From IMG/VR virus record IMGVR_UViG_3300040801_001112, positions 1 to 20,997 of that record: a stretch of DNA of 20,997 bases; one strand, given 5' to 3'. Positions 1-20,997 of the stretch are shown here, piece after piece; position 1 is the stretch's first letter, and each line of letters starts with the position of its first letter. Source of the stretch: a virus. The translations under genes were made by a program, and so were the position numbers. The notes below the pieces were generated by a model, which had not been told where the DNA came from, searched no databases, and saw only the letters and a list, made by a program, of their open reading frames with translations.

Positions 1-100
1 GACCGTCTTCGTGATACTGGAGAACCTTGTCGCCTTTCTTGTACGACGAGATGCTCTTCCACTCTGATCCATTGAAGTACTCGGTGTAGGCATCGACGCA
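1..100 (-). other. Intein N-terminal splicing region inside the terminase (partial)
   Basis: The insert begins at Cys115 of the terminase reading frame (codon at 98-100), directly after TGATG. The first residues read CVDAYTEYFNGSEW, followed by KSISSYKKGDKVLQYHEDG. This matches intein block A: a nucleophilic Cys1, a Thr a few residues on, a G-x-W turn, then a 'K-x-G-D-x-V' strand. The frame stays open to the window edge, so the insert's length, any homing endonuclease and its C-terminal His-Asn are not visible. Protein splicing would be needed to restore the ATPase P-loop. Confidence 0.88.
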
Positions 101-442
101 GCCGGTGGCTCCGGTTAGCAGCAGCTCTTTAATCGCTCCGTTGTTAAGACCCTTCCACCAATACTTGTTGGCGCTGATGATACAGCGGCGAACCTCAGGC
201 CATAGTGTCAAATCGGTCGAGCCGAGAAACTGAGGCGAGTCCAAGAACTCTTCGATAGGTACGGGGATCGTATGCAGGTTTGATAGGAATTTCAGGAAAT
301 CGTTATTGTTGTGCGACTCCTTCTGCTCCAGCGCCCATGAATACATTTCGGCAAGCTGCGGGTTCTCGAACTGCTGCGCCGATTGTCTGGCCACCTCCGC
401 TAAGCGGCTGGCCTTGGTGGCGGCTTTGGTTGGTCTAGCCAT
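1..442 (-). CDS. terL: Terminase large subunit, N-terminal part, interrupted by an intein (partial)
   Basis: Partial gene, open to the left edge; 147 codons are visible. Its ATG overlaps the TAA of the small-terminase-like gene (TAATG). Residues 1-114 look like the start of a phage terminase ATPase: an Ala/Gln-rich helical leader, a segment around residues 62-90 (IEEFLDSPQFLG, then LWPEVRRCI) typical of the region before the ATPase core, and LLLTGATG at 107-114, the first half of a Walker A motif. At residue 115 the expected GKT/GKS does not follow. A cysteine opens a typical intein N-terminus instead. TerL is the ATP-driven motor and nuclease that cuts and packages the genome into the prohead. 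The call rests on the N-terminal segment, the half Walker A and the TerS-like neighbour; the nuclease half lies outside. Another P-loop ATPase is possible but less likely. Confidence 0.72.
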   Translation of the reverse strand, partial: MARPTKAATKASRLAEVARQSAQQFENPQLAEMYSWALEQKESHNNNDFLKFLSNLHTIPVPIEEFLDSPQFLGSTDLTLWPEVRRCIISANKYWWKGLNNGAIKELLLTGATGCVDAYTEYFNGSEWKSISSYKKGDKVLQYHEDG

Positions 443-2038: not shown

Positions 2039-3544
2039 CTATAGCGCGGGGGCGTCCATCTCCAAACCTAGCCGCTTGTTAAACGCCTCAATAGCCTCCT
2101 TCCCCAGACTCATCGTTGTTCCGTCAGAGAATGGCAGGTCGTGGAATTCGAATAGCAGCGCCTCACGTAGCACCTTAGGGTTGACCCTAACTGGGTGCTT
2201 GCATCGGAAGTAGAATACGTTACCGCCCGGCCAGCAGTCCGTGGTCTTCCAGAACATTTTGGTGATGCCCTTTAGCTCGTCTTGGCTGTGGAACTTCTGA
2301 ATCTTTGGGTTGTGTAGGGAGTCGCCAAGCCGCACGTTAGGCTCGGAGTCGAACATGAAATAGGAGGCCTGCCGTATCCCGCCGTATTCATAGTGCGCAT
2401 CTGATACATCGCGGCAGGTTCCGTAAGTGACTGTCCGGACGTTTGATAGGGCGTGGACAATTGCGAGTACACACATCCGATCCCTAGGGAAAGGTATGCT
2501 ATTAAGTACAGAAGCGAGAAATATCGAACCAAACGACACTCCATCGGCTGCACTTCGAAGGAATTCCTGCGCCTTCTGTCGTGAGAAGTTCGGGTCCGGT
2601 TTCTTACTTTCAGAATCAGGGTTGATACGGTACGGCTCAAAGTCATAGCAGTTTATACCCTTGCCCCGCAAGAACGGAGCTACTTTGCACAGGCCAGCGC
2701 CGAAGTCGCATACCGTATTTCCGTGCAGGTCTCGGAAGTTTACCCAGTAGTCCCTAGTGTAGCTGTCTTTATCTGCCAGTGTACGCTCGCCGTTTGCCCA
2801 GAACCTGTAGGCCTTGGGAACGCTGCCGCGATTGTTCTGCGGGCGGCGGTAGGCGCTGTATCTGAGAACGTCTGCAAACTCCTCGTTCACGGAAAAATCC
2901 ATGGACAGGTAGTTGAGAAAATGGAGCGCGAACTCAGCCAACTCCTCGGGGATTGTGACTACCGGCCATTCAGTTTCGCCGTGCTCCAGTGCGCATAAGA
3001 TTCGATGCACGCCGTTAACGATACGCCCGCTATCTGATACTACAGCTGGTATGCGGATATTCTTTCGCAGCATAGTAGACGCCGCGACTATAGCTTTTTT
3101 GTCGTACTCTTCTGAGTGCGCCTTGCCCAGCTCTCTGATATCAATAAGCTCTGCATCCGATACGTACCAGTCTTCTTCTAGTAAGTCAGGTAAATCCTCT
3201 GCCAGCGCTACGATATTGTTGAGGTTTAGTTTCTCTAGACCGCCTGAGCCTGTGTCGAGCGCGCCGAAGTCGTTAGTGACGCGGTTAAACAGTATGTTGA
3301 TACCCTTTACGTCTTTTTCCGGCAGATTAATGTACTCCACCGGTACGGTCTCAAGGCCCAGCTGTTTGGCTACCATGAGACGTTGGTGGCCGGATAACAA
3401 CAGGTTGTCTTCGTTGGCGTAGACCGGCATGACGAAGCCCAGCTTCGACAAGCTGAGTGATAGCAAGTGCAGCCTCGCGGGGTCTGTGTGCCGTGGGTTC
3501 GACTCGTCTGGCTCTAGCTGATCAACAGGTACTAAAGGATACAT
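2039..3544 (-). CDS. Double ParB/Srx-like domain protein fused to a methyltransferase-like domain
   Basis: 501 aa; ATG 3544 overlaps the upstream TAA by one base, with AGAGG about 10 bases before it. Three parts. Residues 1-75 are a ParB N-terminal-type domain: PVDQLEPDESNPR, then the nucleotide-binding box LLSGHQRLMVAKQLG at 49-63. Residues about 150-200 look like a second, shorter ParB/sulfiredoxin-like unit with NGVHRILCALEHG at 177-189. Residues about 275-430 resemble a class I methyltransferase: VCDFGAGLCKVAPFL (motif I, 278-292), an acidic strand end CYDFEPY, and a later SVLNSIPFPRDR. ParB-like domains in phages often accompany or are fused to DNA methylases and bind or hydrolyse nucleotides. 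No DPPY/NPPY or cytosine-methylase PC motif was found, so the substrate is unknown and DNA methylation is not shown. Confidence 0.78.
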   Translation of the reverse strand: MYPLVPVDQLEPDESNPRHTDPARLHLLSLSLSKLGFVMPVYANEDNLLLSGHQRLMVAKQLGLETVPVEYINLPEKDVKGINILFNRVTNDFGALDTGSGGLEKLNLNNIVALAEDLPDLLEEDWYVSDAELIDIRELGKAHSEEYDKKAIVAASTMLRKNIRIPAVVSDSGRIVNGVHRILCALEHGETEWPVVTIPEELAEFALHFLNYLSMDFSVNEEFADVLRYSAYRRPQNNRGSVPKAYRFWANGERTLADKDSYTRDYWVNFRDLHGNTVCDFGAGLCKVAPFLRGKGINCYDFEPYRINPDSESKKPDPNFSRQKAQEFLRSAADGVSFGSIFLASVLNSIPFPRDRMCVLAIVHALSNVRTVTYGTCRDVSDAHYEYGGIRQASYFMFDSEPNVRLGDSLHNPKIQKFHSQDELKGITKMFWKTTDCWPGGNVFYFRCKHPVRVNPKVLREALLFEFHDLPFSDGTTMSLGKEAIEAFNKRLGLEMDAPAL

Positions 3545-4254
3545 TACCGCTCAGCCTCTTCATACTCCGTCATACCCAGCCGCGCTTTCAGGTCTGCAAC
3601 GATATCGTCCTCGTTGAAATCATTCTCTACTCGTACGGCTCTCGACCACCGCTTGTAAGCCTCCATGGGAAGGAAGAATACAAACTCCGATATAACTACG
3701 CGGGCCTGCGTAGGGGCGCGTGGGTCAACTCTGGTGGCTCTCTCGCGATCATCATCGTCCATGAAGCCTGTAGCGGATAGGCAATCGTCCTCAACGATAT
3801 CGGCTAGGCAGTCAATCTCTTCCGTAGTGTATCCCAGCCCGACGAACTCGCTGATATCGATGCCTGCTTCCTGCAATGCAGCAAATTCTTCCTGCAGCAT
3901 ATCGGTGTCCCATGTCGCTATCTCAGACACCTTGTTGTCCGCGATCCTGAACTGCTTGACCTTCTCGTCTGATAGGTCCGTGACCTTAACCACAGGAACC
4001 TGAGTAAGCTCAAGCTGGCAAGCCGCACGGTAGCGGGTGTGGCCTGCAATGATTACGTTCTCGCCGTCCACCATGATGGGGACGCGAAACCCGAAGCTGC
4101 GTATAGAGTTGGCAACAGCTTCCACCGCCTTGTCGTTGTTGCGCGGGTTATTTGCGTACGGGTAGATGTCAGCAATATCTACGTACTCAATGTCTATCCG
4201 GTCAGGCTGAGACTCCTGCACTTCTTCAACTTTCTTCTTTCGTGTTCTCGCCAT
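3544..4254 (-). CDS. ParB N-terminal domain protein
   Basis: 236 aa from ATG 4254, with GGTGGAAG just upstream; an in-frame GTG at 4263 would add three residues. The start MARTRKKK is very basic. ParB-like domain at about residues 22-95: IADIYPYANNPRNND (partner box I), VPIMVDGENVIIAGHTRYRAACQL with the box II motif GHTRYRAA at 71-78, and VPVVKVTDL. The typical phage extension RIADNKVSEIATWD follows at 103-115, then an acidic C-terminal half. This is the ParB type commonly found in phages beside DNA methylases, not the plasmid-partition type: no central HTH is seen. It starts about 17 bases after an intrinsic terminator and overlaps the next ParB/methyltransferase gene by one base, so the pair is co-translated. 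Exact function unknown. Confidence 0.88.
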   Translation of the reverse strand: MARTRKKKVEEVQESQPDRIDIEYVDIADIYPYANNPRNNDKAVEAVANSIRSFGFRVPIMVDGENVIIAGHTRYRAACQLELTQVPVVKVTDLSDEKVKQFRIADNKVSEIATWDTDMLQEEFAALQEAGIDISEFVGLGYTTEEIDCLADIVEDDCLSATGFMDDDDRERATRVDPRAPTQARVVISEFVFFLPMEAYKRWSRAVRVENDFNEDDIVADLKARLGMTEYEEAER

Positions 4255-4270
4255 TACTTCCACCGTTTCA

Positions 4271-7041: not shown

Positions 7042-7401
7042 TCATGAGCCTCCTAGGTGCTGTAGGGCGTAGGTAGGGACGACCGCCACTTCCATTTCAG
7101 GGTTACCAAGCTCATCGATAAACTCAATCACGATAGCCGGTAGTTCGTTACTGGACAAAGCTGCCTCTTCAATTTTGCGCACCATGTCTCTGGTTACGGA
7201 GAACGATTTATTGCCAGTGGTCTTCGCTTCTATACGTACCACGCCAAAGCACTTCTTCACATCGCCTTTTTCGCTGCCTGATCCGGAGCCGGGAACCCTC
7301 CGCCCCTGCATGCGGACAGAGAGTTCTTTCTCCTGCTTCTTGGCTCTGTGGTACCCCTTGCTCTGGCCTTTGTCGCGGTTGAGAAACCCGTTCCTACTCA
7401 C
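7042..7401 (-). CDS. Hjc/RecU-like PD-(D/E)XK nuclease, putative Holliday junction resolvase
   Basis: 119 aa; ATG 7401 overlaps the RecA stop by 8 nt. The compact nuclease core is easy to follow: Glu24 in KQEKELSVRM, a glycine/serine loop RRVPGSGSGSEKGD ending in Asp47, and Glu58-Ala-Lys60 in RIEAKTTGNKSFSV. A 'KI..EA' helix follows, then PAIVIEFID and EVAVVPTYAL strands. The E...D...ExK pattern and the 'GSG..KGD' loop are those of archaeal Hjc and related phage resolvases. It would bind and nick branched DNA with Mg2+. It lies between recA and the Fe-S nuclease. A different structure preference, such as nicked or flapped DNA, cannot be excluded. Confidence 0.8.
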   Translation of the reverse strand: MSRNGFLNRDKGQSKGYHRAKKQEKELSVRMQGRRVPGSGSGSEKGDVKKCFGVVRIEAKTTGNKSFSVTRDMVRKIEEAALSSNELPAIVIEFIDELGNPEMEVAVVPTYALQHLGGS

Positions 7402-8530
7402 TAAAAAAATTTCTCATTTTGATAATTTTATTTACAAACTGCTCGGGCATGTGCGAGGCCGCAGCTTGATGGCCGACAAGCCAGAACCATAAGTGAGCCT
7501 GCAGTGCCTGATCCTCACGTAGCGCCTGTATGCACTCTTCCTGTTTGCCGAACTGCAGGTGCACGTCATCGAACTCTAGATGCTGAGACTTGCCTGCCCC
7601 GGTGTAGTAGCCAAACTTCTTAGCGAAGGTCAGCATCGTAGGCGCGTTGTCAATATCGCCTGACGTAAGCGGAGGCTGCACATCGTCATCGCGAATCAAA
7701 GTGAACTCTCCTGACCGAGAACTGTTGCATATCTTGTTCTTCAGTATGGAGTAGGAATGCTCGTTGGTAGTGATCGTTTCTACCGACTCAGCATTACGCC
7801 CCTTGTTCTCTTTGTTTTTGATGTCGATGTGCACAGACGTTGAGTAATCCAGAGCCTTACCACCCGGCAAACTGCGAGGCTCACCAAACGGAGAGAAGCC
7901 GCCGATCTGTGCTCGCCACTGGTTGACGTACATGATCGTGACAAAGTGTCCACGGCTTCGCTCTTTGATCATCGCCGCAGTGAGCTTACGAACCATGCTG
8001 CTGATCAGCTTGGCGTGTATGCCTACGTGAGCGTCCTCTGCGCTGCTGTCTATCTCTCGTGTAGGCGTTAACGCAGCCAATGAATCGATGAGCACTAGCG
8101 AAGTCTCTCTAGATGAGACAACAGCATCCGCAATGTCTACCGCCATCTCGCCAGACTCCGGCTCTACCACCATAAGACGGTCCGTATCTACGCCTAGCTG
8201 TGTAGCCCATTCTGCATCGAACGTACCCTCCGCATCGATGTAGACAGGAACGCTGTCGAGGTCCATCTTCTGGACCCCGCGTATGATCTTGCCGCACATC
8301 GTGGACTTACCTGCGCTGCGCTTGCCTGTAAGCAACGAAGCTCGGTTATGCGGTATCCCGCCGAGCGTAGCCATATCCAGAACAAACACGCCTGTGCTGA
8401 TCCGGTCTGGCTGAACTACCTTGTCGGCCTTACGCATAACAAACTCGCCGTAGCGTTTGTTAATGGCAGAAGCTGTTTCAGCAAGCTCGCCCGTTAGGGC
8501 GGAGCCGTCCTTCTTTCGAGTCCTAGCCAT
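7394..8530 (-). CDS. recA: RecA-like recombinase
   Basis: 378 aa from ATG 8530, which overlaps the upstream stop as ATGGCTAG; the open frame extends to 8611 but that part would lie within the upstream gene. The start is basic (MARTRKKDGS). ATPase core: Walker A GKRSAGKST at 69-77, YIDAEGTFD at 97-105 with the catalytic Glu101, Walker B LVLIDS at 145-150, then NQWRAQIG at 203-210 and PGGKALDYSTSV at 222-233, which correspond to loop L1/L2 regions of RecA. The P-loop is uninterrupted. RecA coats ssDNA and drives strand exchange; in phages it supports recombination-dependent replication and repair. Neighbours are junction nucleases and a UvsW-like helicase, fitting that role. The C-terminal part (about 260-378) differs from bacterial RecA. 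Confidence 0.93.
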   Translation of the reverse strand: MARTRKKDGSALTGELAETASAINKRYGEFVMRKADKVVQPDRISTGVFVLDMATLGGIPHNRASLLTGKRSAGKSTMCGKIIRGVQKMDLDSVPVYIDAEGTFDAEWATQLGVDTDRLMVVEPESGEMAVDIADAVVSSRETSLVLIDSLAALTPTREIDSSAEDAHVGIHAKLISSMVRKLTAAMIKERSRGHFVTIMYVNQWRAQIGGFSPFGEPRSLPGGKALDYSTSVHIDIKNKENKGRNAESVETITTNEHSYSILKNKICNSSRSGEFTLIRDDDVQPPLTSGDIDNAPTMLTFAKKFGYYTGAGKSQHLEFDDVHLQFGKQEECIQALREDQALQAHLWFWLVGHQAAASHMPEQFVNKIIKMRNFFSE

Positions 8531-8861
8531 CGGCGTTAGCACCTGTGTATTGATCGACTTCATCGGCCAGACGGTCTGCAACCCAATCAGCGCATTCCTT
8601 CTGGGTCTCATTAACCATCTCTACGTAGCAGGGCATGCTGACAGAAACGTCAATGCGCAGCGACTCGTAGTCACCCATGTTAATAGTCTGCCCTGCCGCG
8701 ACTCTCACGTAAGCAGGCTCTGTTTCGAAGATATGGATATCTTTTTCCACGTGTTCTATCTCCTCCGCATTCTTGAACGGAGTGACCATTACGCGTTTGG
8801 TAGACGACGCCACTTCCGTGTGCGCAGTCGCTCTTTTTCTACTTCTCGTTCTTGTTGCCAT
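8523..8861 (-). CDS. Conserved-looking small phage protein of unknown function
   Basis: 112 aa; ATG 8861 with a strong SD AGAGAGGTG six bases upstream, inside the end of the HTH gene (23-nt overlap). It begins with a basic tail (MATRTRSRKRATAHTE), then a beta-rich core (EPAYVRVAAGQTINMG, DYESLRIDVSVSMPCYVEM) and a helical, acidic end (KECADWVADRLADEVDQY). I do not recognise a named family. The 'G-x-Y-E-S-x-R-x-x-V-x-x-S-x-P-C' segment looks like a conserved fold. Its stop overlaps the recA start, so it is translationally coupled with recA; an accessory or loading role for recombination is possible but only inferred from position. Confidence 0.8.
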   Translation of the reverse strand: MATRTRSRKRATAHTEVASSTKRVMVTPFKNAEEIEHVEKDIHIFETEPAYVRVAAGQTINMGDYESLRIDVSVSMPCYVEMVNETQKECADWVADRLADEVDQYTGANADG

Positions 8862-9414
8862 GGCTTACACCTCTCTCTTGCCTAGCGATATTCAACGTAC
8901 GCCACACCTCTGCTACCGTATCGACGTGCGTTGAGTGGAAATAATCAAACGTGTCGTAGTGGTCGGCCAACGGCACGATAAATGCCTCGACCTCCCAAAG
9001 GGCATATTGCTTGTAGCCGTAGATCGTGTCTACGTATACAGGCTCTGGTACCAACCCGTCTGCGATCCATCTTTTAAACCCCAGCTGTGACATGCCTAAT
9101 GCTTCGGCTGTCTTGTTTATCGTATAGGCGAGTTCCACTACTGGGTCCCCGCCGTTAACCGGCACTATTTCTTTTCGCTGAGCCTCCGCCAGTGGCGCGC
9201 GGCTCTTTAAGACGTTCGGGCGCTTCGGGTTGTTTTTCCGATAGGTGCGCCGTGACGCTTGTTTGACTTTCTCTCGATACTCTGGGTCGAGACGGTATAG
9301 TTGCCGTCTAACTTCTTCACTATCTTTCTTTCTCTGAGCATCCGATTTAGACGCCTTGCGGCTGCTGCGACTTGATTGGCGTTTTGTTTTACTGGCTCGC
9401 TCCCTAACTCCCAT
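8839..9414 (-). CDS. MerR/excisionase-type helix-turn-helix protein
   Basis: 191 aa; ATG 9414 has a strong SD (GAGGTG about 5 bases away). Its first 208 nt overlap the end of the helicase gene in another frame. Residues 1-80 are Lys/Arg/Ser-rich and look disordered (KTKRQSSRSSRKASKSDAQ). Residues about 95-145 form a MerR-like winged HTH: YTINKTAEALGMSQLGFKRWI, then GLVPEPVYVDTIYGYKQYAL and WEVEAFI, where the wing tyrosines and the 'G-x-x-x-Y' step are typical. The remainder is helical (YFHSTHVDTVAEVW). Probably binds DNA as a transcriptional regulator or an architectural factor. No internal ATG gives a shorter protein that keeps the HTH. Confidence 0.82.
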   Translation of the reverse strand: MGVRERASKTKRQSSRSSRKASKSDAQRKKDSEEVRRQLYRLDPEYREKVKQASRRTYRKNNPKRPNVLKSRAPLAEAQRKEIVPVNGGDPVVELAYTINKTAEALGMSQLGFKRWIADGLVPEPVYVDTIYGYKQYALWEVEAFIVPLADHYDTFDYFHSTHVDTVAEVWRTLNIARQERGVSHGNKNEK

Positions 9415-10862
9415 TGGTACACCTCGGCGTTTGATTTCACGTACTCGCCAATCCTGTTGGCGAACTGATACTGCGATCTGAACGAATGGGTATCACTTAT
9501 GGTCACCCAAACTGGGGTCTTCTTGCCCTTATGCTCTCTCAGTATTCTTCCGTGAACCTGAACTGCCTTACTGCGAGGTGTCATGTCGATACCTGCTGAC
9601 AGCCTAGGAACGTCTACGCCTTTTTCAAATTTCCCATAAGTTGCCAGAACTATCCTCGCGTTATCTTTCGCGTGGTTAAGCTCGGCAGCTTTACTACGAC
9701 GGCGAACACGCTGGAGGGAAACCGGCGTGTACTCTGTACCCCTCACGTAACCTCTAGGGCGGCGTGAAGGACTGTCGTTTTTTACCCACCGGTACTCGGT
9801 CTTGAACCCAGTAACGATGCCTATATCTTCGTCGGGTATGCCCATGTAGTAGAGCATGTCCCCTACGTCTTCACACTGCTCTACCCGATCACTGATAGCC
9901 AGTACATGGTGTCCGTCTTTGTAGAGCCTTTTAATGATCCGCGCAATCAGGTTGTTGCGCTGCCCGTCCATCGCAATCTCGCTAAGGTACCGGCCAGACT
10001 TTGGGCTGGAATTTGCGTACCAGCTAAAGCTCTGCCCGTTGTAGTCAACGTAGCGAAGTATCGAAGTCGCATGCTGTGCCTCAAGGTAAAGCTGCACGTC
10101 TCCCAGAGAAGCCCGTAGTACCTCCTCCAGAACATCGGTACGCTCTGACGTAGCGCTTAGCCCGATGCGTATCACGGCTGGGATGTTGTTCATAACCCGC
10201 GAGAACTTTCGCGCTCCTATAGTGTGGCTCTCGTCAAATATAGCGACACCAAAGTATTCCCAGAAAGCAGCGGGCATGTCTCTATCGTAGAGGGACTGAA
10301 CCATGCCTATCACAATACTGCGGCCTTCCCAGTCCTCTACCTTACCCTGCACCAATCCTATTTCATCGGGGTCCACACCGAACAGGTCCGTGGCACGCTC
10401 TATCCACTGGTCCCGCAAAAATTCCTGATCGACAATAATCAGCGTGGTTAATTGCAATCGCCTGCAAAGCTCCAACGCCATGACTGTCTTACCTTTACCG
10501 GTAGCCGCTTCCGCGCGGATGTCGATAAACGGATTACCGTCATACTTGAATGGCATTTCTGACAGCATTTCAAGAGAGTCTACAAACGGCACCTGTTCAT
10601 CCCTAAGCTGAATAGGTTTAAAACAGTCCTCCTCCAATGAATAGCCGCTGGTAACATACTCTGGGTATAGACCCAGCTTACTTGCGTAGTCTCTTGGCGC
10701 GAGAATGCCCCCTTTTACGGGGGCGTAGTTTAGGAATGTTTCCGTATCCTGAGTACCAACATCGTAAACCTCCAGCGTAAGGTAGGACACCGCCTTGCCG
10801 TACGCTGGGTGGGTCTCAGGAATGAAAGACATCCCCAAGTGCTTAGCGGCTTCGTCGGGCAC
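9207..10862 (-). CDS. Superfamily 2 helicase, UvsW/XPB-like
   Basis: 551 aa from GTG 10862, chosen because GGAGG lies four bases upstream. ATGs further up (to 10916) arise from the Asp-codon repeat of the preceding gene and have no SD. Helicase motifs in order: Walker A AATGKGKT (119-126), ADQ-like IIVDQEFLRDQW (motif Ia), DESH (210-213), GLSAT (motif III, 234-238), then a second RecA domain with AISDRVEQCE (motif IV), YGKFEKGVDVPRL (motif V) and VQVHGRILR (motif VI). UvsW-type helicases branch-migrate and unwind R-loops or D-loops and link recombination to origin use in T4. A long N-terminal region of about 80 residues precedes the core. Overlaps the SSB-like gene by about 20 nt and the HTH gene by 208 nt. 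Confidence 0.9.
   Translation of the reverse strand: MPDEAAKHLGMSFIPETHPAYGKAVSYLTLEVYDVGTQDTETFLNYAPVKGGILAPRDYASKLGLYPEYVTSGYSLEEDCFKPIQLRDEQVPFVDSLEMLSEMPFKYDGNPFIDIRAEAATGKGKTVMALELCRRLQLTTLIIVDQEFLRDQWIERATDLFGVDPDEIGLVQGKVEDWEGRSIVIGMVQSLYDRDMPAAFWEYFGVAIFDESHTIGARKFSRVMNNIPAVIRIGLSATSERTDVLEEVLRASLGDVQLYLEAQHATSILRYVDYNGQSFSWYANSSPKSGRYLSEIAMDGQRNNLIARIIKRLYKDGHHVLAISDRVEQCEDVGDMLYYMGIPDEDIGIVTGFKTEYRWVKNDSPSRRPRGYVRGTEYTPVSLQRVRRRSKAAELNHAKDNARIVLATYGKFEKGVDVPRLSAGIDMTPRSKAVQVHGRILREHKGKKTPVWVTISDTHSFRSQYQFANRIGEYVKSNAEVYQWELGSEPVKQNANQVAAAARRLNRMLRERKIVKKLDGNYTVSTQSIERKSNKRHGAPIGKTTRSARTS
10452..10467. repeat. Copy of the TTGCA-N6-TGCAA element inside the helicase gene
   Basis: TTGCAATCGCCTGCAA differs by one base from the copy at 5588-5603. 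It lies within the codons for CRRLQ of the helicase, so coding constraint could explain it. Confidence 0.35.
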
Positions 10863-11895
10863 TAGGCCTCCGTGGTCTGCGAGCGGGAGGAGCGTCATCG
10901 TCATCATCGTCATCATCGTCGTCTACCGCTCGGGTAGGTCTGCGAGTCGGACGCGCTGATGGTCGAGCTTTGGCCTTAGCACGAGGTCGAGGCCGTTCTT
11001 CCTCCTCTTCATCGTCCGCCTCTTCCACCTCATACGGAGGCTCATCGTCGTCCTCTTCCACCTTGGATTTACGGCCACGGCGCGAGCGAACAGGTACATC
11101 GTCGTCATCGTCCTCGTCGTCAACATCAGCCTTGCGGCCTCGGCGCGCGCGAGGCGGGACTTCCTCTTCGCTGTTGGCTTTGCTAGAGCCGGGGATTGAA
11201 CTATCCAGCCCTGAGTCACCAAAGAACGACTCGTACTGTTCTATCAGAGTGGCGCGATCCACCTCTGGGAAGAACTCATCATAGTCGTACGGCTCGTGAC
11301 ACTTCTCTACGACACGCTTACCGTCTTTCTGGTAAGAGCGCTCGTATTCTAGAAGCTCGTCCTCATCCATGAACCCAGCGAACTCAATATCGTTTCCGAT
11401 AACGGGGGACTTGTCGCCATCGCGTGATAGCTCAAAGATCGCACCGCGAAGCGTGCCCTCCTTTTCGAACCGGCGCAGAAACTTCTTCTGCTGCTGGGAC
11501 TTAACGAGGAACAGCTTACGTGAGTAGGGGACGCTTTCGCCTTTAGTTGTAGTAAACGGTTTCAGGTCCAGAACCGTAAGGTACATGTTGTACGCTGAGT
11601 TGGTCCCGCTCGCCTCGCAGATGGGGCATACATCATCCTGCTCGATGCACTCCATCATAAGTCCGTACTTCCCAGTATCCGGATTCTTCAAGTTGTGTTC
11701 ATAGACGAAGAACGAAGGCTCGTCATCCAGAATTACTACCTGTCGGTTGGACTCGCCGTTGGGCATCCAGAACGTGAAGGGTCTGCGCGGCATCAGGGAG
11801 TTACCCTCTCGGCGGCGCTTCTGCTTCTCCAGCTCCTGATCTACTCTGTTACGTGCTGCTTCGCCGCGTAAGCGGCCAGAACTCTTTCGTACCAT
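10843..11895 (-). CDS. Putative ssDNA-binding protein with polyampholyte tail
   Basis: 350 aa from ATG 11895 (GGAG seven bases upstream); a TTG six codons earlier lies in the palindrome and is unlikely. Residues 1-40 are basic. The core (about 38-210) carries FTFWMPNGESNRQVVILDD, FFVYEHNL and a zinc-like cluster of His67, Cys83, Cys90 and Cys93 (CIEQDDVCPIC), followed by beta-rich segments. This resembles the gp32-like, zinc-containing OB-fold proteins of many phages. From residue 240 the tail alternates basic blocks (RARRGRK, RSRRGRK) with acidic ones (DVDDEDDDDD, EEDDDEP, ten Asp in a row) and ends basic (RRPRRPSARRSR). SSBs normally end acidic for partner binding, so the basic end is odd. 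Lies among primase, helicase and RecA genes. Function inferred. Confidence 0.75.
   Translation of the reverse strand: MVRKSSGRLRGEAARNRVDQELEKQKRRREGNSLMPRRPFTFWMPNGESNRQVVILDDEPSFFVYEHNLKNPDTGKYGLMMECIEQDDVCPICEASGTNSAYNMYLTVLDLKPFTTTKGESVPYSRKLFLVKSQQQKKFLRRFEKEGTLRGAIFELSRDGDKSPVIGNDIEFAGFMDEDELLEYERSYQKDGKRVVEKCHEPYDYDEFFPEVDRATLIEQYESFFGDSGLDSSIPGSSKANSEEEVPPRARRGRKADVDDEDDDDDVPVRSRRGRKSKVEEDDDEPPYEVEEADDEEEEERPRPRAKAKARPSARPTRRPTRAVDDDDDDDDDDAPPARRPRRPSARRSR
10894..10923 (-). repeat. GAY-codon repeat (ten Asp codons)
   Basis: Thirty bases of alternating GAT/GAC code ten Asp residues near the end of the SSB-like protein. The same repeat creates spurious ATG codons in the helicase frame. 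A likely slippage site. Confidence 0.85.
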
Positions 11896-17368: not shown

Positions 17369-20026
17369 TTAGGTCCAGAGGTGGATTTCTTCTGGGGCTT
17401 GCAGGTGCTCTGGCAAATCCAGAAGCCCATCATTCTCAGGCCATGTCTGTTCAGGAAGCTCAAAGTCCATCTCTTCGGCATGCAGGTCAAAATTGTAATC
17501 GTCTGCAAGATTCAGAGTCTCCATCTCAAACACCTTGGACCCGTTCATACCAAACGATACGTCCGCAACCATTGGCACCTTCATTTTGATGTTGAACCAC
17601 TCTTGGATCGGATTGGACTCCATGTAGTACTTCAGCATCTTCGCCCCCCACTCGACATGCTGCGCAGGTACCCATGCATAGATCGCGTCATGGACAAACC
17701 CGACCGGCTTCAGGAACCGTGGATCGATTTGCTGGGTGATACGCGCCAAAGACATTACACCTAGGCTGGAAGCGAACTCCTGCACCGGTGAGTTGATCGC
17801 TTGCCGCAGCGCTCCCTGCTGGATGTAGTCCGTGTCTGAGTAGACTGTGGGGAGGTGCCGTACGCGCCCGTCATAGCTCCGTACGTAGCCTTTCTGCATG
17901 GCGAACTCCCGCATAGCGTTGTGCCATGGACCGAGCCGTGAGTAGGTCTGGAAGAACCTCTCGCGTATCGCCTGTGCTTCCTGTTCGGTAAACTCCACGC
18001 CGTACTGCGTCTTTGCGTAGGATACGAATTTCTTCCACCACATTCCGTAGAGAAACCCGAAGTTCACGGCCTTCGCTTTAAATCGCGCGAGGCTACGAGC
18101 GTCAGGCTCAAGCTGGCCGAACTCGCGCTCGGTACAACCCATGACGATGCAGGCTGTTCGTGTGTGGATATCACCGTTGTTACGGTAGATATTGATCATC
18201 GTAGGATCGTTTGACATGTCCGCCGCGATGCGCAGTTCTGCCTGAGACAAGTCAGCTTCCAGCTGTACGTATCCCGGCGGCGGCACGAATATCTTTCTGT
18301 AGGCTTTAGCCGCCGCCCCACGCTTAGGAAAATTCTGGCCGTTCGGATCGCGTGAACTGGTGCGCCCTGTAACAGCCTGAGACAGCGAATAGATCGGGTA
18401 GATGCGCCCCTCGTGCATGTAGTTGTCGCGGAACTTGATCACGTTCGCATCTAAGATTCGCTTATTCTTGATGTACTCCGCTAGCTCAAAAGTAAACGGG
18501 CATTCCTCAAAGAAGAACGGCAGATGGTCTTTGGTGCTGGTGCTTGGCACGCGGTACTGCGGTTCTAGATTCTCTGTGCTTTTTGTAAACACTCTCGGGC
18601 GTAAACGGAATCCGTCTTTGTGCGAAAACAGTATCGCCTGTACGAACGCAGCCCTGCCGAACGACAGCCCATTCATTGGTTTCTTTAAGTCCAAGAACTC
18701 TCTGGTGATGGTGGTGGGTACCTGCTCTATCAGCGTTTGATAGTCAGTCTCTACCTGCTCCGTCAGCACCTCTTGGAACTCGTCAAGTGAGTCCTCATCG
18801 ATGAGCATGCCGTCAGTCTCAAACGACAGGAAGGCGTTAAGCCCCGGCATCGACACCATGCGATAGCTGTTCCATAGAACGGGGTCTTTCTCCAGCTCCT
18901 TCTTCAACGTGTAGTACAGGCGTAGAGACGCGTCTGTATCTCCGCAGCCGTAGCCTACGACTCGATCTAGCGGCACCTCCCGCATATTCGACTTGTCTAT
19001 CTCCGCGTTGAACTGGTCTGCGTATCCTGCCATCTCAGGTACGTAAATCTTGATGGCCGTATCAAGGTCTTTGTTCTGGAGATTCTCGTTTAGACACGCG
19101 AGCATCATCAGCGTGTCATTGCCCATGCGAAAATGTATACCGAGTTTCTTTAGCACCCATGATGCGTCGAACTTCAGATTGTGACCGACGATGTTTCGGT
19201 GCTTTTGACAGAGTAGCTCTCGTAGCTGCTGCTTAATTTTTTTGCGCTTACGTAGAGGCATCGGCCTGTCAGGATGATCCCACGATAGTAGGTATCCGCT
19301 GCCCACCTCTGGGGAGAACTGCATCGTCAGTAGCTCGCAGTCTTTATCGTACGGGTGCAGCCCCTGCGTCTCGACATCGAAGGCCAAATCTTCAGGGTCC
19401 ATGTCGATAAGGAACTGCAGGTCATCGATCAGCTCATAGTTACCGGCCCTGTCTTCCTCGACAGCGTTCATGTCATATTCGAAGCCCTCCATCCTAGCCA
19501 GCGCCTCAAGGTCTGACTTCAGGAAAGCGAGGTTCTGCGGGTACTGGTTAGCAAGCACTGGGTCCTGCATGGCGAGTATCTGGGCGTTGAACTCTTCGCT
19601 CCAGTTTAGTACGCCGCGCACCTTGGTGATCTTAACCGCACGGCCATAGACCTGCTTAGCCGCCTCTTTCCCTAACGGTATAATCACCTCTGGCTTCGCT
19701 TGGTTAATTACGTTGACTAGATGGTGTCGGCAGCGCGTCTCAATCTCTTTGCGCTGTGCTGCAGGGTACTTGGTTTCATCGTAATCACAGCGTACGGAGT
19801 TGGCCCATGCAAAGTCCTTGTCCGTGAAGCCCGCCTTCCTTGCGTATTTGGTCAGCGTCTCCATCGCCTTTGGAGGTAGTATCCTGTCATTGCGTAAGCT
19901 GTCCGTAGAGGGCTGCTTGCCGACGATCAGGAAAGGTCTGTTCTTGCCCAGCTTAGCCTTGCTCTTGCGCCTACAGCTAATTATCGGGCACCCATCACAT
20001 GGGTTCTCGGGATCGATGTCACTCAT
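17369..20026 (-). CDS. polA: DNA polymerase I-family (family A) with N-terminal UDG-like domain
   Basis: 885 aa from ATG 20026, overlapping the helicase stop by 8 nt (ATGAGTGA); an ATG at 20068 (MARTANPTQ) is an alternative. Residues 1-180: family-4 uracil-glycosylase-like domain with Cys10, Cys13, Cys80 and Cys99 placed for a 4Fe-4S cluster, IPLGKEAAKQV and a closing FLKSDLEAL. Residues 205-375: 3'-5' exonuclease with Asp217/Glu219 (FDVETQ), Asn283/Asp287 and Tyr359/Asp363. Residues 400-835: polymerase; motif A DLSQAELR (Asp592), motif B Arg648-x3-Lys652-x3-Phe656-x3-Tyr660, motif C His779-Asp780-Ala781. The last 50 residues are acidic. It is the replicative polymerase of the phage. Phe656 fits normal dNTP preference. 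Motif C has Ala where Glu883 of E. coli Pol I stands. No 5'-nuclease domain. In a run with the helicase. Confidence 0.95.
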   Translation of the reverse strand: MSDIDPENPCDGCPIISCRRKSKAKLGKNRPFLIVGKQPSTDSLRNDRILPPKAMETLTKYARKAGFTDKDFAWANSVRCDYDETKYPAAQRKEIETRCRHHLVNVINQAKPEVIIPLGKEAAKQVYGRAVKITKVRGVLNWSEEFNAQILAMQDPVLANQYPQNLAFLKSDLEALARMEGFEYDMNAVEEDRAGNYELIDDLQFLIDMDPEDLAFDVETQGLHPYDKDCELLTMQFSPEVGSGYLLSWDHPDRPMPLRKRKKIKQQLRELLCQKHRNIVGHNLKFDASWVLKKLGIHFRMGNDTLMMLACLNENLQNKDLDTAIKIYVPEMAGYADQFNAEIDKSNMREVPLDRVVGYGCGDTDASLRLYYTLKKELEKDPVLWNSYRMVSMPGLNAFLSFETDGMLIDEDSLDEFQEVLTEQVETDYQTLIEQVPTTITREFLDLKKPMNGLSFGRAAFVQAILFSHKDGFRLRPRVFTKSTENLEPQYRVPSTSTKDHLPFFFEECPFTFELAEYIKNKRILDANVIKFRDNYMHEGRIYPIYSLSQAVTGRTSSRDPNGQNFPKRGAAAKAYRKIFVPPPGYVQLEADLSQAELRIAADMSNDPTMINIYRNNGDIHTRTACIVMGCTEREFGQLEPDARSLARFKAKAVNFGFLYGMWWKKFVSYAKTQYGVEFTEQEAQAIRERFFQTYSRLGPWHNAMREFAMQKGYVRSYDGRVRHLPTVYSDTDYIQQGALRQAINSPVQEFASSLGVMSLARITQQIDPRFLKPVGFVHDAIYAWVPAQHVEWGAKMLKYYMESNPIQEWFNIKMKVPMVADVSFGMNGSKVFEMETLNLADDYNFDLHAEEMDFELPEQTWPENDGLLDLPEHLQAPEEIHLWT

Positions 20027-20997
20027 GAGGCATTGTGAATCCTGTGTTGGGTTCGCCGTCCTCGCCATCAGTATCTTCGATGGGTCGGTCTCGTGTCCCG
20101 AACATAAGCTCTTGCGTCTCACGCGGGCACTGCTCAAAACTCAACGGCGAAAACTTGAAATCGATTGCGAACTTTGTGTACTCGCCCTCACGTCCTTTCA
20201 GCGTTTCAATCACACGCTTGTCTGGACGCGGTGACCTTTCGTTGGGTGGCATCTTTACGGCTATCACCAGCGAGGCGTGCTGTCCGATAGCATCGCTGAA
20301 ACCGATCTGCTCAAGACCTCCTCCTTTGCCTCCCTTTCCTGCATCTCTGCTGAACTGGCTGGTAGCGATGATTGGCCTGTTTCTCTGGATAGCCATTTTC
20401 TTTAGCTCGTCAGCAATGTATCCCACCTTGCTGATGCGGTCAGTTCTCGACGGCGCGTTGCTAGGCTCCATGATGTACATACCATCGATGTAAACCACAT
20501 CCGGAGAAAGCTCTTGTATCAGGATGTCTATCTCCTCAGGCTTCTTACCTTTGAAGTTACCCGCGTACATCATGAACCGGTTATCGTCTTCCATCTCCTC
20601 CATCACTTCTCTAACGCGGTTCCAGTGCCTAGTCGATAGGCGTCCTCTTCTCAGAAGGGCTGGGTTTACCCCGGCGCGTTGTGCGTAGAAGCGGTAGGCG
20701 ACTTGCCGCAGCGTCATCTCCATCGATACCAGCAGTACTTTCTTGCCCGACATCCATGCCAGTCTGGCCATGTGGATCAGAAGGTGAGTGTTATGGGTTA
20801 CCGTGAAATCCCAAAGGCAATATAAGCTGTCTCCGTCGAGGGTTATACCGAAGTAATCTCCTTCTCCTTCACTTTCGAGCAGGAACCCTGTAGCAAGTTC
20901 GTTGTACTTGTTTTCCCTGTGAGAAGAGTGCGCTTGTTTACGCCGTATTATCGTAGGTATGTCGTGCACTCGGCCATAATTAAACAGCCGATAATAC
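20019..20997 (-). CDS. dnaB: DnaB-like replicative helicase, C-terminal part, interrupted by an intein (partial)
   Basis: The frame is open to the right edge; the gene's 5' part lies outside. The visible extein starts at Thr (codon 20787-20789) and covers the RecA-like ATPase after the P-loop: THLLIHMARLAWMSGKKVLLVSMEM (helix and strand after Walker A), Walker B VVYIDGMYIM, PIIATSQFSRDAG (sensor Gln), and IGFSDAIGQHASLVIAV. Thr follows His-Asn of the intein, so Walker A is split as GK|T. DnaB-type helicases unwind DNA at the fork and load primase. The C-terminus (PNTGFTMPHE) is short and lies over the polymerase start. A UvsX- or Sak4-like ATPase is less likely because of the SMEM and QFSR motifs. 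Confidence 0.88.
   Translation of the reverse strand, partial: YYRLFNYGRVHDIPTIIRRKQAHSSHRENKYNELATGFLLESEGEGDYFGITLDGDSLYCLWDFTVTHNTHLLIHMARLAWMSGKKVLLVSMEMTLRQVAYRFYAQRAGVNPALLRRGRLSTRHWNRVREVMEEMEDDNRFMMYAGNFKGKKPEEIDILIQELSPDVVYIDGMYIMEPSNAPSRTDRISKVGYIADELKKMAIQRNRPIIATSQFSRDAGKGGKGGGLEQIGFSDAIGQHASLVIAVKMPPNERSPRPDKRVIETLKGREGEYTKFAIDFKFSPLSFEQCPRETQELMFGTRDRPIEDTDGEDGEPNTGFTMPHE
20790..20997 (-). other. Intein C-terminal splicing region inside the DnaB-like helicase (partial)
   Basis: Reads through from the edge: YYRLFNYGRVHDIPTI, then TGFLLESEGEGDYFGITLDG and DSLYCLWDFTVTHN. This is intein block F (GDYFGITLDGDS-like), followed by block G with DFTVTHN, ending in the His-Asn pair that cyclises. 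The +1 residue is Thr, a valid nucleophile. Upstream parts (Cys1, any endonuclease) are outside the window. The usual Gly before Asp in block F/G is Trp here. Confidence 0.93.

What the first reader, a model, noticed from the sequence alone, without database searches (positions are those of the whole stretch)
20790..20997. Second intein, splitting GK|T of the DnaB-like helicase
The frame entering from the right edge ends in DFTVTHN and is followed at once by the sequence after a DnaB P-loop, with +1 Thr. Trp replaces the usual Gly in front of the DFTVTHN block. Two essential ATPases of this phage, the fork helicase and the packaging motor, are therefore both interrupted at or inside Walker A.
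Basis: partly seen in the sequence, partly recalled or inferred. Interest (0 to 1): 0.6.

Follow-up and report, generated by a model that had tools for sequence, protein, structure and literature searches.

The report
Intein tail in phage DnaB helicase
The right edge of this viral fragment holds the last 69 residues of a self-splicing protein insert (an intein) sitting in the ATP-binding loop of the phage's replication helicase; this is a real but ordinary case, because the same intein family sits at that spot in many phage ATPases.

Summary
Confirmed, but ordinary. On the minus strand, window 20996-20790 encodes 69 residues ending ...YCLWDFTVTHN, followed in frame at 20789 by Thr and a DnaB-type helicase C-terminal domain (Pfam DnaB_C, 3e-21). 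Intein-free phage homologues align so that this Thr is the T/S of Walker A GK[TS], placing the insertion at GK|T. The 69 residues match, along their whole length, the last fifth of a LAGLIDADG-bearing intein family (profile positions 269-335 of 335, E 2e-18). Most of 88 complete relatives begin GK|Cys and end HN|Thr/Ser. Fourteen other viral contigs carry a DnaB-like gene with an intein at the same point. Trp before DFTVTHN is unique among 83 distinct C-ends (61 have Gly), but the position tolerates D, K, E, A, Q and N. The first half of the helicase, the GK, Cys1 and the endonuclease lie beyond the 20,997-base record and are inferred. The second intein, in TerL, is also inside Walker A but three residues upstream and in a different family, so neither arose recently from the other. 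P-loop inteins at K|T are published for phage and bacterial ATPases. New member of a known kind.

The parts
20790..20996 (-). C-terminal 69 residues of an intein: last strand of the LAGLIDADG domain, linker, Hint C-terminal part (blocks F and G), ending in His-Asn
20787..20789 (-). Thr +1: first residue of the C-extein, nucleophile for splicing and Walker A Thr of the spliced helicase
20019..20789 (-). C-extein: DnaB-type replicative helicase ATPase domain from Walker A Thr onward, stop codon included
17369..20137 (-). neighbour gene: UDG plus family A DNA polymerase, directly downstream of the helicase as in SM1, RHph_I4 and RcDurkin phages; its listed start overlaps the helicase end
101..442 (-). 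N-extein of the other interrupted gene: TerL up to GATG of Walker A
2..100 (-). first 33 residues (CVDAYTEYFNG...) of the left-edge intein at G|xGK of TerL; a different intein family

Best explanation
This is the tail of a cis-splicing, Cys1-type intein that carries a LAGLIDADG homing endonuclease and is inserted between Lys and Thr of Walker A of the phage replicative helicase. The unspliced precursor cannot form a working P-loop. The intein excises itself using Cys1, Thr+1 and the terminal His-Asn, and joins GK to T to give active helicase. The DNA spreads by endonuclease cutting of intein-free P-loop coding sequences. Shown here: the HN|T junction, the family membership and the site by alignment. 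Inferred: Cys1, the endonuclease, splicing and homing.
For: Full-length 69/69 match with inteins of phage SF2 helicases, 51% identical to Escherichia phage Bas95, whose record marks the intein. Profile match at the extreme C-terminus, E 2e-18. Of 88 complete relatives, most are GK|C...HN|T/S and about 20 are xG|C...HN|[ST]GK. Fourteen viral contigs carry a DnaB-like gene with an intein at the same point. The model of a DnaB-hosted relative (L030, pLDDT 95.9) resembles PI-SceI, and the fragment begins at its residue 279, in the last strand (277-285) of the endonuclease domain. Pfam finds Hom_end_hint and LAGLIDADG in relatives. The fragment has no Cys at the block F position used by class 3 inteins (Gly there; compare sequences), so a nucleophile at position 1 is expected. 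[quoted passage not shown] the DnaB-b site of M. smegmatis is in the P-loop (PMC6195587).
Against: The N-terminal half is not in the record, so Cys1, block B, the endonuclease active site and the GK half are unseen. The unique Trp and other departures (Asn where 51 of 53 relatives have Ile, and a two-residue insertion) leave room for a weakened intein.
Confidence: 0.9

Rival explanations
1. Split helicase gene with a split intein: the N-half of helicase and intein is encoded elsewhere and joined by trans-splicing.
For: The N-half is not in the 21 kb at hand, and the upstream sequence is unknown.
Against: The frame stays open to the very edge, and the fragment already reaches back into the endonuclease domain, so the break would have to fall inside or before that domain. 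The complete relatives inspected are single open frames.
Confidence: 0.04
2. Decayed or non-splicing intein that leaves the helicase broken in this genome.
For: Trp unique among 83 C-ends; several otherwise conserved residues differ.
Against: His-Asn and Thr+1 are intact, the frame has no stop, and the helicase C-half keeps all 13 residues that are invariant across the family alignment.
Confidence: 0.04
3. Assembly chimera joining the intein end of another gene (for example an SF2 helicase) to the DnaB C-half.
For: The best named-phage matches of the intein piece are in SF2 helicases, and the contig ends 208 bases further on.
Against: The join is exact to the codon at the Walker A Thr, and other viral DnaB-like genes show the same arrangement in longer contigs.
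Confidence: 0.02

Closest known systems
Phage SF2-helicase inteins at GK|T (Escherichia phage Bas95, Vibrio phage 489E54-1, Escherichia phage Sciku, Salmonella phage SETP3)
   Same: C-part matches along its whole length at 42-51% identity; ends DFTVTHN|T; same Walker A sub-site in those inspected
   Different: Extein is an SF2 helicase, not DnaB; Gly instead of Trp before DFTVTHN
Viral DnaB-like P-loop inteins of the same Cys1 family (L018, L020, L023, L028, L030, L038)
   Same: Same extein type, same GK|T/S site, same family
   Different: Complete; exteins are more distant DnaB relatives; inteins only moderately alike
Mycobacterial DnaB-b intein (M. smegmatis DnaBi1) and Ala1/Gly1 viral inteins (L019, L021, L024-L027, L029, L031)
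   Same: Insertion in the DnaB P-loop
   Different: DnaBi1 is class 3 and lacks an endonuclease; the Ala1/Gly1 set has the block F Cys that the window piece lacks
Mycobacteriophage TerL1-a and TerL1-b inteins (PMC5050341)
   Same: P-loop insertions in phage ATPases, TerL1-a between Lys and Thr
   Different: Terminase host; not compared by sequence here
PI-SceI (yeast VMA1) and fungal Prp8 inteins
   Same: Fold and sequence kinship of the family profile (1dfa 4e-44, 6mx6 2e-26)
   Different: Eukaryotic hosts, other sites; the Prp8 structures are short and match only the Hint part

Membership tests
Intein (general) | Terminal Asn with penultimate His (block G) | tested here: met
   ...TVTHN, residues 63-69
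Intein (general) | +1 Cys/Ser/Thr of the C-extein | tested here: met
   Thr at 20789-20787, aligned to Walker A T/S of intein-free homologues
Intein (general) | Insert absent from homologous host proteins | tested here: met
   HJ05, SM1, RHph_I4, RcDurkin, DLP5 helicases are uninterrupted
Intein, class 1 | Cys/Ser at position 1 and block B | not testable with these tools
   Record ends at 20997; nearly all complete relatives have Cys1
Intein, class 3 | Cys at block F position 4 and no position-1 nucleophile | tested here: not met
   Gly50 at the position where Ala1/Gly1 relatives have Cys-[IL]-x-V (sequences, compared by eye)
LAGLIDADG homing-endonuclease intein family (Hom_end_hint) | Endonuclease domain inside the intein | tested here: inconclusive
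   Only the last strand is in the record; relatives have the domain
DnaB-type replicative helicase | DnaB_C ATPase domain | tested here: met
   PF03796 3.3e-21, phrog_19 2e-34
DnaB-type replicative helicase | GxxxxGK half of Walker A and N-terminal domain | not testable with these tools
   Beyond the record; no N-half elsewhere in the window

The most novel reading that the evidence does not exclude
The helicase and terminase inteins act together as a post-translational switch: both replication and packaging ATPases stay off until conditions allow splicing, in the manner proposed for mycobacterial DnaBi1.
Probability: 0.04. Interest if true: 0.6.

Novelty: new member of a known kind. Interest (0 to 1): 0.16.

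Why it matters
It adds one more phage replicative helicase to the list of P-loop ATPases invaded by inteins. The wider set gathered here shows a family that keeps to its Walker A sub-site (3 changes on the intein tree against about 18 when labels are shuffled) but moves between unrelated ATPases (8 changes for DnaB against other hosts, with 11 DnaB-type hosts). That fits homing driven by the shared P-loop coding sequence, in line with published views of P-loop inteins.

Tried and rejected
Single-protein and two-sequence searches of viral contigs for the helicase found no close relative; a seven-sequence alignment was too variable to search with. Exact 26-base patterns of both contig ends found no overlapping viral contig, so the missing halves could not be recovered. 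A helicase N-half elsewhere in the window was sought and not found. The tree position of the 69-residue piece is unstable: beside L036 on the window columns alone, beside L042/L046 on full inteins, so no nearest donor is claimed. The idea that one intein of this phage came from the other was rejected on sub-site and on lack of profile match; the two cannot be aligned directly, since the window holds only the start of one and the end of the other.

Full report
What is there. The record is a linear virus contig of 20,997 bases, and the window is the whole of it. On the minus strand an open frame enters from the right edge and runs to a stop at 20019. Its first 69 residues are YYRLFNYGRVHDIPTIIRRKQAHSSHRENKYNELATGFLLESEGEGDYFGITLDGDSLYCLWDFTVTHN; then follows THLLIHMARLAWMSGKKVLLVSMEM.... 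From the Thr onward it matches Pfam DnaB_C (3.3e-21, entering the profile at position 33), PHROG 19 DnaB-like replicative helicase (2e-34) and TIGR00665 DnaB (5e-19, below cut-off).

The insertion point. The nearest intein-free relatives are helicases of Aeromonas phage HJ05, Pseudomonas phage SM1, Rhodobacter phage RcDurkin, Rhizobium phage RHph_I4 and Stenotrophomonas phage DLP5, at roughly 30-40% identity. In the alignment the window's Thr falls on the T/S of their GK[TS], for example VGRPNLGK|TYLLLH in HJ05. When these proteins are cut at GK|[TS], the C-halves of HJ05, SM1 and DLP5 align from their first residue at window 20789, and the N-halves have no significant match in the window. In SM1, RHph_I4 and RcDurkin the helicase is followed by DNA polymerase I, as in the window, where UDG plus polymerase A lies at 17369-20137.

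The intein. The 69 residues match phage inteins over their full length: Escherichia phage Bas95 51% (1e-14), Vibrio phage 489E54-1 51%, Bacteroides phage BS162P1 49% and many Salmonella phages; the Bas95 and Sciku records mark the intein explicitly. Those read here sit in SF2-type helicases at GK|C...HN|T. A profile of 13 complete inteins matches the window piece at positions 269-335 of 335, E 2e-18 for a library of 24,736. A scan of viral contigs with the C-end found more than 500 related loci. Of 88 complete family members in hand, most are GK|C with T or S next, and about 20 are xG|C with [ST]GK next; nearly all start with Cys.

DnaB hosts. A DNA pattern for DFTVTHN[TS] plus the DnaB [ML]EM motif gave 14 viral contigs, all with an intein end at Walker A of a DnaB-like or primase-helicase gene; L022 holds only the C-part, L026 and L027 share one protein, and L024 and L031 are near-identical. 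They fall into two groups: Cys1 inteins (L018, L020, L023, L028, L030) and Ala1 or Gly1 inteins with Cys-[IL]-x-V in block F, the hallmark of class 3. The window piece has Gly at that place and so belongs with the Cys1 group; Cys1 is therefore predicted for the unseen start.

Endonuclease. Pfam finds Hom_end_hint and LAGLIDADG domains in complete relatives. An AlphaFold model of the DnaB-hosted L030 intein (pLDDT 95.9) matches PI-SceI in the PDB (Foldseek 2e-23), and the family profile matches PI-SceI by sequence at 4e-44. The window piece starts at L030 residue 279, inside the last strand (277-285) of the endonuclease domain. A mini-intein would not be expected to carry this stretch, so an endonuclease or its remnant is likely upstream. 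This is inference.

The Trp. Among 83 distinct C-ends the residue before DFTVTHN is Gly in 61, Asp 9, Lys 5, Glu 3, Ala 2, Gln 1, Asn 1, and Trp only in the window.

The other intein. The left edge is TerL up to TGATG, then CVDAYTEYFNGSEWKSISSYKKGDKVLQYHEDG. The extein aligns with RHph_I4 TerL and its SM1 and HJ05 counterparts, whose Walker A reads GATG|TGKT or GCTR|SGKS. The junction region is about 60% identical to that of inteins of Enterocloster phages, which end TGN|[SC]GKT. Neither it nor those relatives match the profile of the right-hand family. So both ATPases are interrupted inside Walker A, at sub-sites three residues apart, by different inteins. The window also holds two uninterrupted P-loop ATPases, a RecA (7394-8611) and an SF2 helicase (9207-10916). 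More than one intein of this broad family per viral record is not rare: six of 52 records had two or three long matches.

Movement. On a tree of 77 complete inteins the Walker A sub-site changes 3 times (shuffled mean 18, minimum 13), while DnaB against other host changes 8 times with 11 DnaB-type hosts (shuffled mean 10.5). The family keeps its sub-site and changes gene. The sample was chosen by similarity to the window's C-end, so the figures describe this set only.

Known ground. [quoted passage not shown] M. smegmatis DnaBi1 sits in the DnaB P-loop at site b (PMC6195587). A review lists DnaB, RecA and RadA among P-loop hosts (PMC5874633). The finding is therefore a new member of a known kind.

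Limits. The GK half-motif, Cys1, block B and the endonuclease core were not seen, and no overlapping contig was found. Splicing and homing are inferred from family knowledge.

Noticed in passing
window 1-100 and 20790-20997: Both ends of the contig fall inside inteins. Inteins are known to make variable islands in phage populations (PMC7468147), so mixed intein-plus and intein-minus genomes may have stopped the assembly at both ends.
   Followed up: partly
window 2-100, minus strand: The TerL intein belongs to a second P-loop family, with relatives in an Enterocloster phage P-loop protein, an exodeoxyribonuclease V and a Vibrio phage PhoH-like helicase, ending TGN|[SCT]GK rather than HN|T.
   Followed up: partly
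L019, L021, L022, L024-L027, L029, L031: Viral DnaB-like genes with Ala1 or Gly1 inteins (start unseen in L022) and a block F Cys, the class 3 pattern, at the same GK|T site as the Cys1 family; two splicing mechanisms share one site.
   Followed up: partly
G049 (contig of L022), G013 (L045), G044 (L112): Viral records with two or three inteins of the broad P-loop family.
   Followed up: no
window 9207-10916, minus strand: The SF2 helicase, the commonest host type of this intein family among named phages, is uninterrupted here (Walker A ATGKGKT).
   Followed up: no
window 2039-4263, minus strand: Two neighbouring ParB-like proteins, the longer one (501 aa) with no Pfam match; next to a methyltransferase at 1194-1967.
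   Followed up: no
L063 (G021:C1:45182-46105): An intein relative that lacks the middle of the profile (matches 1-143 and 175-340), possibly a reduced endonuclease.
   Followed up: no
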